Positions 4,614 to 58,996 of a DNA stretch of 64,000 bases are shown in pieces. The translations under genes and the position numbers were made by a program. The notes beneath the pieces are model-generated. The model was not told where the DNA came from. It worked only from the letters and a program-made list of their open reading frames with translations, and did not search any database. Position 1 is the first letter of the stretch, and every line of letters begins with the position of its first letter. Origin of the DNA: Taxawa tesnikishii (nom. ined.) (taxonomy: Eukaryota > Ascomycota > Dothideomycetes > Dothideales); assembly GCA_030247885.1 (NCBI GenBank), contig JAPDRO010000018.1, positions 372,001-436,000 on the forward strand, read 5' to 3'.

Positions 4614-7046
4614 TCACAGACCGCCAGTCAAGTAGTACGTAACACTGCTGTTCAGGAACGCACACTGCGGCTGATCCACAAACGGTGCGGTCCTCGCCGG
4701 ATAGTCAAGCAACTTAGCCGGTCCGGTCTCGGTGGCAACCTTGTTCCAAGGTCCACTGCTCCGAACCCCATTGATAGTGTTGGTGTATCCCCTCACTGTT
4801 AGGTACGACAGTGACGGGTTGGGCTGATAACTTTTGATGAAGCTGCCAAAGTATCCGCTCGTGAGCTGAATGGTGCGCAAGTCGTTGATGTCGCGGAAGC
4901 TGTGCAGGGCGCCGAAGAAGTTGGGCAGATCGGACGAGTGCACCTTGTAGTAGGGAGTGTTGGGGTCACCTGGCGTTACACGCGTTAGTGTTCAGTATCG
5001 ATGTAGCAACATGTATTCAACGAGCTTACCAAGTGGGTACTCCGGAGTGATGGTACCCGTGATATCGAGGCCGAGAGGGTTGTAAGCTTCTTCTGCGTAC
5101 GCTCTCCACTAGTCCGCGTGTTAGCAAAACGAAAACCAATCTCTCTTCACTGTCTTGCACTTACAGATTCGTAGTAGTAAGCAGCTGCAAATGCGCCAGA
5201 GGATGCACCTGCATATACCGTCGCCTCATCGACGCATCGGAAAACAAGATCAGTGGCGACACGCTGGGACACGTTCAAGGAATCAGCTGTGACATTTCCG
5301 GTATCGTAGTATGGAAACAGCCCGGAGCTGATAACCTGCTGAGCGTAATATGGTGAAATACCAAGATCCGATTCGAGGCATGACAGTTCAGTCGTGCAGG
5401 TCTTGTTGTAGCTGGTACCGATCGAGCCTCCATCGTTCTCCGCTATGCCGAAGATGACTGGGATGTGAGCAGTGTTGTTGTTCCTGCTGGTGAGGATCAG
5501 TTCCTCCGTGTTGATAACGTAGCCGTCCTGGACAGGGTAGCGTGCAACTGCACTGAATGCGCTGAGGTCTCCTGAATATGTGGAAAGACATTCGACCTGT
5601 GCAGCTACGGTGGACTGGTTGCAGCCGGCTTGGTGGAACTGGACATAGTCAGCGGGAACGGCCGATCTCACGGGAGGGCTGGTTGTGCTTACAATCTGTT
5701 CACCGGCCAGGGCGAACGACTGATTGATTGTCAGGTAAGAACTGTATGTGGTTCCGTATCCACTTCCGAGACCAAGCTGAGCAACGCATTAGTGGTGCAA
5801 CCTTTTGCTGTGACCGGGACCAACTCACCGCGCGATCGAGACCAAGGTTCGACATTGCAACAGCCCCTGGAACTTTCCAATCGCTTGCAACGATCCGAGA
5901 AGGACACGAACGGAGCCAGCGCCTGCGGACTGTCCGGCAATGGTGATCCTCTACATCAGTAAGTTAGCATCATTTCGGCATTTGTAACGTCAATCATCGC
6001 ACCTTCGGATCTCCACCAAACTTGGCGATGTTGTCAATGACCCACTCCAACGCCGTGATCTGATCTGCCAGGCCGTAGTTTCCAGATAGGACTCCTGGCA
6101 CCGCCAGGAAGCCGTACGTGTTGAGACGGTAATTGATGGTGACTGTGACTACATCCTCACGAGTAGCCAGCTGGCCTCCATTACCCGCGCCTTGCCCACC
6201 TAAAGAGGCTATCAGTCAAGAGTTAAAGCCGTGTGACGGTAGTACCTACCGGTGTATCCTCCGCCGTGAATCCAAAACAGAACTGGGCGAAGGTTCTTGC
6301 TTGAGCCTTCCTTGGGGATGTACGGGGTCTCGATGTTGAGGAAAAGGCAGTCCTCACTACCGCTGCCATACTGCAAGCACTCGGAGCCAATGGCCGTAGC
6401 GTTGACGACGGAGCCGTTTCCTTGATACACTGAGGAATAATTCCAACGGCCTGGGAACGCTGCATAGCGGACTCCAGTGAACCAGAACGCTTTTTTGTTC
6501 CGGTAGCCTTCGTAGATATCGCCCGATTGAACGGTCACGAGAGCTGTGTTGTTGATCGGAGAGTATCCTCCCCACTGGTTACCTGGCTGAGTCTGAGTGC
6601 AGAGAACAGGCAACTTTTGGCTTGTGCGGTGGGATGCCGATCGGACGACGAGCTGGTTCCTGTTGACTTGGAGGATGCCGTTTTGGACCCAGTAAGAAGG
6701 GTTGTTCACGTATCCGGCATACTGTGTGTATTCCAGCTGAGGCCTCAAATCCGAGGAGTGGTTAGAGATGATAGCATTCGTCAAAAGGGTCTCCTGGAGC
6801 GCTGCGCATGCATTCTGACCATCTGTATATGTCATGGGATCCAGAAGGATGGCTCCGACATGGTTGACATCGTCCTACGTAGTCGATCAGTATAATCTAG
6901 GATGTAACGGATATGACAATCCATACTGTGAAGTTGAGATTGTTCTGATACAGAAGGGTAAGACTGGAATTGGCATTAGATAATGGGACAGCCGCAGCTG
7001 CTGCCGCAGCCTGGAGCAGAGCAGCAATCACCGAGAGACGCGCCAT
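4614..7046 (-). CDS. Secreted type-B carboxylesterase, one apparent frameshift
   Basis: Seven minus-strand exons (7046-6927, 6874-6250, 6199-6003, 5950-5829, 5776-5165, 5108-5030, 4969-4614) with 52-99-nt introns encode about 703 residues. The start opens a hydrophobic Ala-rich signal peptide. Family hallmarks are SEDCLFLNIETP, the oxyanion loop FWIHGGGYTG, the nucleophile elbow AGQSAGAGS, ENDGGS with the likely acidic triad residue, and the late HSSDLPNFFG with the likely catalytic His. It should hydrolyse ester bonds outside the cell; the substrate is unknown (lipase- and cholinesterase-like members share this fold). Exon 4 is one base short: after KFQ the frame leaves the family sequence at the C4 run 5864-5867, and one more base would restore both the MSNLG block and the phase of the next intron. 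I regard this as a likely consensus error, but a true pseudogene is possible. Confidence 0.85.
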
Positions 7047-8278
7047 CTGACTGAAACTGCAGCAGACCTGGCAAACACATTTTTGCCATGAGCGGATGCG
7101 CGCTATTAATCAATCATGCATTTAGCCGAATGGAGCAATGGTCGGACCACGTTCTCCGCAATGCGGAGGTCCTGGATCCCCGCATGCCATCTTGAATAGA
7201 CACGGTCGCACGGATATGAATGTGATATAACCGCCGATTGTGGCGCTTTCGGACAGGTATGTCTGTCCTTTTAGCCTGAGGCTCAACGATTGCATCGACT
7301 GCGGCTCCAAATAAGAAGCTGTGAGATTGGTGGAGAAGCATGCCCTTGAATGGCAGACAGTTTGTCGGAAGTGAGAATCGATTCAGCAACACAAGAAAGA
7401 TACACTAGCTCGACCAAGCAGGGCCAAGCTTTTCCTCTAATCGTATGCTTGGCAGATCCGTTCTCAAGGATGCGAGTAGCAGAACAAGTGCTGTTCTTGA
7501 TATGATATGAGATATGGGATAATGCGCTCGGTTCAATGTTTTTCCTGATGCCAAGCGAGACCTTGCATCTTGCATATCTTGCATAATCTTGCATAATCTA
7601 GCATGCATATCGCATCAGATTTGCAGCTAAGAGGTGGAGTACGAGCGGGACTCTCGAGCACTGTTTCTACTCCGTTCCATCTAACTGATGACATCAACGC
7701 GTTGTACAAACTCGATCCACGCTTAGATGCGTGCTATACGGGCTCACTCCGGACCTTGTGAGGTTGCTGCCATGAGCGTCTGCTTCCTCCTCAGACCCAA
7801 ATCTCCTGGTCTCGTATCGCGACTTCACGCTCCAGGCTGCCTGTTACCGTGAAGAAGCCTCGATATTACTCAACCCAGAATCGTCCTGTAACGACGTGTA
7901 CGGAGGACAAAGAAGAAAGCAAAACGTGAAGTGCACTTGCCTTTCTTGCGCACAGTTGGGTACCCTGGTCTTGGTGAAAACGCTCAAATTCTGCCGAATT
8001 CGTCTAACCCTGATCAGCTCGGGAGCTGGTTGAATGGAGGATTGGGCCTACTTGAAAGCAGTATACTTTGATCTTAGACACGCTTTGACGAAAGGAAGCA
8101 TGAAGAGATAGTATGCCACATCGTACAGGGAGCTCTTGCTGTGCAGCAGTCTTCCGGCCCAGTGGTGGGAATATCGATCTCAACGACTCATGCATGAGTG
8201 ATTGAGAGACCTTCTCTACTACAGAAAGGACCGATTGCTTGTTGTGGCAAGTGCCCAGCATTCTATCCAAGGGGTAAT
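7047..8278. other. Intergenic region between carboxylesterase and SKI2
   Basis: This 1.2-kb region holds the esterase promoter and the SKI2 3' end. A small direct-repeat cluster of CTTGCAT/AATCTTGCAT lies at about 7,562-7,605. I see no supported gene. Confidence 0.45.
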
Positions 8279-57483: not shown

Positions 57484-58996
57484 CTAGTAATCTACCTGAC
57501 AATGATTTGAACGCTCAGCCCTTCCATTTGCCCTCGCTTCCCTCCTATGGTCCCACAAGGGTGCCGGGGAAAGGCCAGCCCTCACATTATCATACGCCAC
57601 GTCCAAATCCTCCTCCCACACGAATTTCATCCTCGTCCTCGTGCGCTCTGCCATAAGGGGCACGCACTCGTCGTAGCTCTTGTCCAGCATGTCTTCCGTC
57701 TGCATCTCGTACGTGTTGCCCGCAATCCTTGAGGTTCTCTGGACCTTCTGCGCCCGCGGCAGGCGTACGGCCTGATAGTGCTCTGAGCAGGCCTGGAGAG
57801 TAGTAAATTGGTTGGGATCGCTGGGAGCGGAAGAATGGGACTGCAGGAACTCGCCCAATGTACGGCCGAGAACCCAGCCGTCTTCCATTGCTTGGCCGGC
57901 GCCGGCGCCGAGGTGGGGAGCACTGTGGACGTTCAAGGTCAGTGCTATGCCGCTGTGTCGCAGCAAAAAGGTATTCCAAGATTTGTAGTCAGACAACGTA
58001 CTTGCATGTGCCGCATCACCCAACAGCATGACTTTGCCGTCAAAGTAATGCCACTGGTCCAATGGTGCTCTGTCGTTCAAGCGCCATTTACCCGGTCGCT
58101 CCGGCATCAGGCTGATGACCTGTTGCACCGTGTCCTCAAATCCCCTGAAGTCCTCTTCAATGTCCTTGCGATCGCACACGGTTGTCCAGCTCTCGACGAC
58201 GTCTTCGACCTCTGATTCTGGAGCCGTAACAAAGGCGACAATATTTAGGACCTTGTTGTTTGTGATGGGAAAGACAAGCATGTGCTTGTGCTTACCGCAC
58301 CAGGCTACGGAGTATGTGTTGAAGGGCCAGGATTTGAGCTGGGAGATGGGGATAGTGCCTCGGTAGGCAATGGTGCCTGAGTAAATAGGCTTGTCTTGTA
58401 CAAACTGGTTACGAATGTTGCTCTTGATGCCATCGCAGGCAACCACAAGGTCGGCGGTTGCGGTCGTGGAGTCGGAGAAGTGTATGGTCACGCTGTCGCC
58501 GTTGTCCTGACCAACTCGTTAGTGACGATTCATTCTTTGCGCCGATATGCGACGGACGTACTTCCACGCGCTTGCACTGTTTCTTCGTGTGTAGGGTCGC
58601 CGCCTTCCGCTCTTCGATCGTGTGCCGATACAGATCCAGAAGATCACTCCTTGCGACGGGCGCCTGACGGATTGTTTTCGTGTCATCGACTGGTATGGTC
58701 ACAATGTCCTCCCCGTTATCGAAACGCCGGAATGTGATCCACACACCGTCCCTTTTGCCCGCAACGTTATTGAGTTGCTCCCCTATGCCAATCTTGTGTA
58801 TCAACCTCGCAGCATTGATCCCCATACCGACCCCAGCTCCAATCTCTTTGAACTCGGAGGCTTGCTCGTAGACGTCGATCTCGATTGGGTAATCTTTGCA
58901 GTGGTGGTGTATGCACAACGTTGCGAAGAGACCTCCAATACCTCCTCCGACGATCGCTACTCGGAATGGCTTCTGGGTCCCTCCATTCGTGGCCAT
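57484..58996 (-). CDS. FAD-dependent monooxygenase, salicylate-hydroxylase-like
   Basis: Three exons (58996-58562, 58506-58002, 57922-57484; introns 55 and 79 nt) encode about 459 residues. The ATG at 58996 places the Rossmann motif VAIVGGGIGGL at residues ~12-22, as in class A flavoprotein monooxygenases. Later come an EIDVYEQASEFKEIGAGVGMGINA segment, VACDGIKSNIR (DG motif), and the FAD ribityl-binding LLGDAAHA followed by APHLGAGAGQAMEDGWVLG. It should hydroxylate an aromatic compound with NAD(P)H and O2; salicylate is only the best-known substrate of relatives. No secretion signal is present. At the exon 2/intron 2 border the phase is one base short, where A-GTACGT is read; AG-GTACGT would fit. 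This may be one more under-called G at ~58,001. Confidence 0.87.

What the first reader, a model, noticed from the sequence alone, without database searches (positions are those of the whole stretch)
5864..58001. Recurrent one-base losses at short homopolymers in eight conserved genes
Twelve places break otherwise well-conserved frames by one missing base: esterase C4 5864-5867; SKI2 ~9,911; HPR1 A5 14075-14079, T4 14691-14694, C4 14713-14716 and T5 14954-14958; homeobox G4 20331-20334; eIF4G G4 27577-27580 and C5 27699-27703; GH5 C4 30251-30254; unknown gene G3 56469-56471; monooxygenase ~58,001. In each case one added base restores the family sequence and the downstream intron phase. All are losses, nearly all in runs of 3-5 bases, and no other damage is present. 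That is the mark of a consensus error, and an automatic annotation would wrongly call truncated proteins or pseudogenes.
Basis: partly seen in the sequence, partly recalled or inferred. Interest (0 to 1): 0.75.

Follow-up and report, generated by a model that had tools for sequence, protein, structure and literature searches.

The report
Missing single bases in genome assembly
Several ordinary fungal genes look broken because the assembled sequence seems to lack single letters, often in short runs of one letter; this is best read as a sequencing-consensus fault, found in other genes of the genome too, not as biology.

Summary
The coding frame does change at 11 of the 12 listed places, in the sense of a missing base. 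The strength differs. At SKI2, the HPR1 T4/C4 pair and GH5, alignments leave no room for an intron. At the other seven the loss reading is probable; at six of these a splice-permitting scan prefers an intron at stricter settings, though with poor splice signals. Site ~58,001 is not a frame break. The HPR1 T4/C4 and eIF4G pairs could each also be one gained base. Single-base losses also occur elsewhere in the 29.4 Mb genome: five bounded by alignment (CCT, HSP70, a Nop56/58-type gene, two aldehyde dehydrogenases) and three by conserved motifs. No gain was confirmed. Bounded intervals hold runs of four or more in 5 of 8, expected 0.83. Best explanation: residual indel error of a long-read consensus; no reads were available, so this is inferred. 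Two other tests failed their controls and are discounted. Ordinary, but a practical warning for annotation.

The parts
5864..5867 (-). Esterase (COesterase): probable -1 frame change at G4 (coding strand)
   Evidence: COesterase profile 184-212 ends at nt 5864 in one frame; best codon frame 1 to 0; scan: loss at -8, other intron acceptor at -9. Downstream 46-aa piece has no PDB relative.
9903..9918 (-). SKI2 helicase: firm -1 frame change; interval ends at a C4 run (coding strand) 9915-9918
   Evidence: 5mc6_h and 7qdr_A match to nt 9917 in one frame and from nt 9890 or 9902 in another; scan calls a loss.
14075..14079 (+). HPR1/THOC1 site a: probable -1 frame change at A5
   Evidence: Best codon frame 2 to 1; scan calls a loss; no Pfam support for these pieces.
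14691..14716 (+). HPR1/THOC1 sites b and c (T4, C4): firm change, net two bases short or one too many
   Evidence: efThoc1 63-91 then 97-147 in different frames; 7znk_A residues 161 and 166.
14954..14958 (+). HPR1/THOC1 site d: probable -1 frame change at T5
   Evidence: efThoc1 97-147 and 137-244 meet here in two frames; best frame 1 to 0; a 71-nt intron is the alternative.
20331..20334 (+). Homeobox gene: weak -1 frame change at G4
   Evidence: Best codon frame 0 to 2, about 2.5 nats each side; 57-nt intron alternative; homeodomain at 19557-19709 intact.
27577..27703 (+). eIF4G: two listed sites (G4, C5); frame changes, two short or one too many
   Evidence: Best frames 1, 0, 2, then 1 after the next intron; 46-nt intron alternative; MIF4G and eIF_4G1 domains intact.
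30247..30255 (-). GH5 glycosidase: firm -1 frame change at G4 (coding strand) before an intron
   Evidence: 9l3d_A in two frames with KTTW in a third.
56469..56471 (+). Gene without family match: probable -1 frame change at G3
   Evidence: Best codon frame 2 (1.6 nats) to 1 (30.2 nats); 62-nt intron alternative; no family above cut-off.
57487..58515 (-). FAD monooxygenase: NOT a frame break; one open frame spans ~58,001

Best explanation
The window comes from a fungal genome whose consensus, probably built from long reads, still lacks single bases, often in runs of one base. Mechanism (inferred; recalled and in the papers cited): the read signal or polymerase timing does not resolve how many equal bases pass, the undercount recurs in many reads, the consensus adopts it, and nothing more accurate corrected it. 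In genes this gives isolated -1 frame changes with otherwise intact protein sequence. Shown: frames, direction, run context, occurrence on other contigs. Inferred: that the true DNA has the base; the platform.
For: Firm shifts at SKI2, HPR1 T4/C4 and GH5. Outside the window, alignment-bounded losses: CCT C1:528261-528264 and HSP70 C3:494622-494625, matches abutting with a 4-nt overlap; aldehyde dehydrogenase C31, profile 163-165 in 8 nt; aldehyde dehydrogenase C5, profile 54-75 in 62 nt; Nop56/58-type gene C3, NOP5NT 45-46 in 5 nt. By motif: isoleucyl-tRNA synthetase C1, HSP70-type gene C1, SNF2 C23. Runs of four or more in 5 of 8 bounded intervals, P = 0.0002; runs of three or more in 7 of 8, P = 0.008. 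No slippery heptamer at 0 of 17 sites. Precedent (passages read): frame errors from homopolymers in nanopore-only assemblies of a fungus (PMC7500977); deletion-dominated indels after some polishers (PMC8011154).
Against: No raw reads. With introns allowed, the codon scan calls only 2 of the 11 window sites losses at penalty -9 (SKI2, HPR1 A5), adds the esterase at -8, reads GH5 at -8 as a gain 17 nt before its intron, and reads the rest as introns or unbroken coding. Its loss excess elsewhere (15 to 4) is confounded, as E. coli also leans to losses. Long-run depletion also appears in T4 and, for C/G runs, E. coli, and A/T runs in gene-rich parts match the simulation. Three of the eight bounded intervals lack a run of four or more, and in HPR1 b/c the run found is not the one named. 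U6 copies keep their C4 run (2 of 2 read). PMC7500977 found insertions more often than deletions after polishing.
Confidence: 0.9

Rival explanations
1. Undetected introns rather than missing bases at most of the listed sites.
For: True for ~58,001 as far as can be told. A splice-permitting scan finds introns that reconcile the frames at HPR1 T5, homeobox, eIF4G (one intron for both sites) and the unknown gene, and another acceptor for the esterase.
Against: Excluded by alignment at SKI2, HPR1 T4/C4 and GH5: the introns the scan proposes for the last two would remove matched residues. The other alternatives at HPR1 T5, homeobox, eIF4G and the unknown gene have no CTRAY motif, three have odd donors. 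Bounded losses elsewhere leave 4-nt overlaps, 5 nt, 8 nt, or 62 nt for 22 residues.
Confidence: 0.06
2. True frameshift mutations: pseudogenes, or a strain with failing mismatch repair that collects one-base losses in runs.
For: The sequence as given has the frame changes; one-base losses in runs also mark mismatch-repair failure (recalled).
Against: Genes hit include ones recalled as essential in fungi: CCT, isoleucyl-tRNA synthetase, Nop56/58-type. The matched pieces are free of stops and keep family matches on both sides.
Confidence: 0.03
3. Recoding: ribosomal -1 frameshifting, transcript slippage or base-insertion editing restores the frame in the living cell.
For: Direction is uniform among the firm cases and several lie in short runs.
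Against: 0 of 17 sites have an in-frame X_XXY_YYZ heptamer; runs of 3-5 are too short for known slippage (recalled); affected genes share no function.
Confidence: 0.005

Closest known systems
Homopolymer indel errors in nanopore (R9-era) or PacBio CLR consensus sequences
   Same: One-base indels, often in runs, that change frames in conserved genes through an assembly of long contigs (34 contigs); described for a fungus in PMC7500977 (passages) and for polishers in PMC8011154 (passages).
   Different: Only losses were confirmed here; PMC7500977 reports insertions more often after polishing. Run-length truncation could not be shown.
Gene-fragmenting errors corrected by Kastor (PMC12007338; abstract and outline seen)
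   Same: Long-read errors that make false pseudogenes in otherwise intact genes.
   Different: That work is on small genomes with reference sets and raw reads; neither is at hand here.

Membership tests
Long-read consensus indel error | Isolated one-base indels without other damage in conserved genes | tested here: met
   Firm at SKI2, HPR1 T4/C4, GH5 and five bounded cases outside; probable at 7 further listed sites.
Long-read consensus indel error | Concentrated in homopolymer runs | tested here: met
   Runs of four or more in 5 of 8 bounded intervals, expected 0.83; three exceptions.
Long-read consensus indel error | Genome-wide, independent of gene function | tested here: met
   Eight further cases on C1 (3), C3 (2), C5, C23, C31.
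Long-read consensus indel error | Long runs truncated in the whole sequence | tested here: inconclusive
   Depletion in the AT-rich block, but the T4 control behaves alike for runs of 6 and 7, and E. coli for C/G runs of 5.
Long-read consensus indel error | Raw or accurate reads carry the longer run | not testable with these tools
   No reads held.
Pseudogene | Further decay: stops, lost motifs, relaxed codon bias | tested here: not met
   Pieces with family matches are stop-free; codon bias kept in most flanks.
Programmed -1 ribosomal frameshift | In-frame slippery heptamer X_XXY_YYZ | tested here: not met
   0 of 17 sites (11 in the window, 6 outside).

The most novel reading that the evidence does not exclude
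The DNA is correct and this fungus restores frames of essential nuclear genes by inserting bases into transcripts, or by slipping, at short runs of one base.
Probability: 0.004. Interest if true: 0.92.

Novelty: not a real feature. Interest (0 to 1): 0.12.

Why it matters
Anyone using this assembly would see false truncations and false pseudogenes in housekeeping genes, and gene-loss or gene-count comparisons would be biased. 'Broken' genes in this genome should not be read as biology until the consensus is checked against accurate reads.

Tried and rejected
Run-length depletion as proof of homopolymer truncation: striking at first (TTTTTT 1 against 13.4 expected in the AT-rich block; A/T runs of 6 or more, 4 against 18.7), but phage T4 shows it for runs of 6 and 7 and E. 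coli for C/G runs of 5. Discounted.

Unsupervised codon-model scan for losses against gains: losses exceed gains outside the window, but E. coli K-12 gives the same lean, probably because of short gene overlaps; about half of planted changes were found (30 of 60 deletions, 32 of 60 insertions). Used only to find candidates. Of its 15 losses and 4 gains outside the window, six losses were borne out by families or motifs (L070, L033, L061, L032, one in L057, one in L005); for the other nine families did not match on both sides or were not asked. Of the 4 gains one is an intron in a CCT gene (L005, about 49 nt), one is a 3-nt edge segment, and two have no family.

An earlier run-context count (10 of 11; 4 of 5) used intervals that I partly set knowing the run; replaced.

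A possible extra shift in the homeobox gene near 20,052 or 20,098: the codon model favours the upstream frame to 20,098 and a 43-nt intron fits; not counted.

RNA test: U6 copies keep their C4 run; 5.8S rRNA was not found, so neither organism nor rDNA could be checked. Paper searches for the assembly by size and contig number found nothing.

Full report
What was checked. The window is G000:C10:372001-436000 of a 29,367,862-base genome in 34 contigs. Short introns and homeodomain, eIF4G, Ski2_N, efThoc1 and Swi3 matches mark it as a fungus; the species was not identified. I translated the pieces on either side of the listed sites separately and compared them with Pfam, with PDB sequences and with a codon model trained on open frames of this genome. 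I did not write out mended genes.

Firm sites. HPR1: pieces in three frames match efThoc1 PF11957 in order along the profile (12-54, 63-91, 97-147, 137-244, 243-293, 292-342). Between residues 161 and 166 of THO subunit 1 (7znk_A) only 10 nt are left for four residues. SKI2: the yeast and human chains fix the switch to nt 9903-9916. GH5: 9l3d_A matches in two frames around the site, and the four residues between read KTTW against KTIW in a third.

Probable and doubtful sites. At the esterase, HPR1 A5, HPR1 T5, eIF4G, the unknown gene and (weakly) the homeobox gene the best codon frame differs before and after the site in the -1 sense. When the scan may also place introns, it calls losses at SKI2 and HPR1 A5 (penalty -8 and -9) and at the esterase (-8 only), and otherwise uses introns or reads on; at milder penalties it places losses near both eIF4G sites (-5) and at the unknown gene (-4), but never at the homeobox run or HPR1 T5, and it reads GH5 as a gain within 17 nt of its intron at penalties down to -8, which the PDB match does not bear out. 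The four alternative introns lack a CTRAY motif, which three accepted neighbouring introns have; this favours losses but does not prove them. The monooxygenase site is an open frame.

Direction. The HPR1 T4/C4 and eIF4G pairs are two short or one long. That the middle HPR1 frame reads like THOC1, and the middle eIF4G frame like fungal eIF4G, is recalled, not computed.

Other genes of the window. Lipase, sugar transporter, Swi3-like and DAHP synthase pieces match their families and by my reading need no shift.

Elsewhere in the genome. Eight Pfam families were searched: 67 matches. Read by hand, junctions between adjoining matches commonly leave about 50-60 nt, as introns would; a few are irregular (aconitase on C11, HSP70 on C23 and C33). 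Two leave none and are losses: CCT on C1 and HSP70 on C3. A nested match in isoleucyl-tRNA synthetase led to a third: the stretch WTTTP continues in the next frame as PWTLPANKA. The scan's list gave five more that families or motifs bear out: two aldehyde dehydrogenases (C31, profile 136-162 then 166-461; C5, profile 1-53 then 76-459 with 62 nt for 22 residues), a Nop56/58-type gene on C3 (NOP5NT 13-44, then 47-66, 5 nt for two residues), an HSP70-type gene on C1 and a SNF2 gene on C23. The last two rest partly on motif reading: the SNF2 upstream piece has no Pfam match, and the HSP70-type gap is 83 nt for 15 positions. No gain was confirmed. The loci were not fetched, so those genes were judged by match coordinates alone.

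Run context. Taking only the gap between aligned residues, widened by 3 nt, in eight bounded cases (SKI2, HPR1 b/c, GH5, CCT, HSP70, two aldehyde dehydrogenases, NOP), a run of four or more is present in 5 of 8, expected 0.83, P = 0.0002; in HPR1 b/c it is an AAAA, not the runs named. Runs of three or more: 7 of 8, expected 3.41, P = 0.008.

Tests that did not help. The run-length depletion and the codon-scan asymmetry failed their controls. Deletion-only error is not universal: a nanopore study of Drechmeria coniospora found more insertions after polishing (PMC7500977, passages), while a polisher comparison shows deletion-dominated results with some tools (PMC8011154, passages).

Judgement. 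Single-base losses in unrelated housekeeping genes, with family matches on both sides and on several contigs, are what an uncorrected long-read consensus gives. Introns remain possible at six listed sites; pseudogenes and a mutator strain are unlikely because of the genes involved; programmed frameshifting lacks its signal at 0 of 17 sites. The decisive evidence, reads, was not available. Losses look denser in the window than in the other genes examined; whether this is chance, gene choice, missed introns or poor local coverage is open.

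Noticed in passing
32001-55000: A 23-kb AT-rich block (GC 0.23-0.35) with almost no CpA/TpG left: (CpA+TpG)/(ApC+GpT) 0.02-0.14 and TpA/ApT 1.7-2.5 in each kilobase, with sharp edges. This looks like near-complete repeat-induced point mutation; it may be a relic repeat array or a centromere.
   Followed up: partly
L073:1501-1559 and L074:1501-1559, minus strand: U6 spliceosomal RNA appears split after the CCCCUGCAC stretch by an intron-like insert (GTAAGC...CAG) before AAGGATGACAC in two of three genomic copies, and the inserts differ; the third copy was not read.
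   Followed up: partly
20052-20141: In the homeobox gene the frame also changes upstream of the listed site; a 43-nt GT-AG intron fits, but is short for this genome.
   Followed up: partly
G000, whole genome: No 5.8S rRNA match in the held contigs (39 of 883 candidates scored), so rDNA may be missing from the assembly or missed by the first look.
   Followed up: no
G000:C12:1692624-1693190: A second DAHP synthase gene, 69% identical in DNA to the one at window 61128-62015.
   Followed up: no
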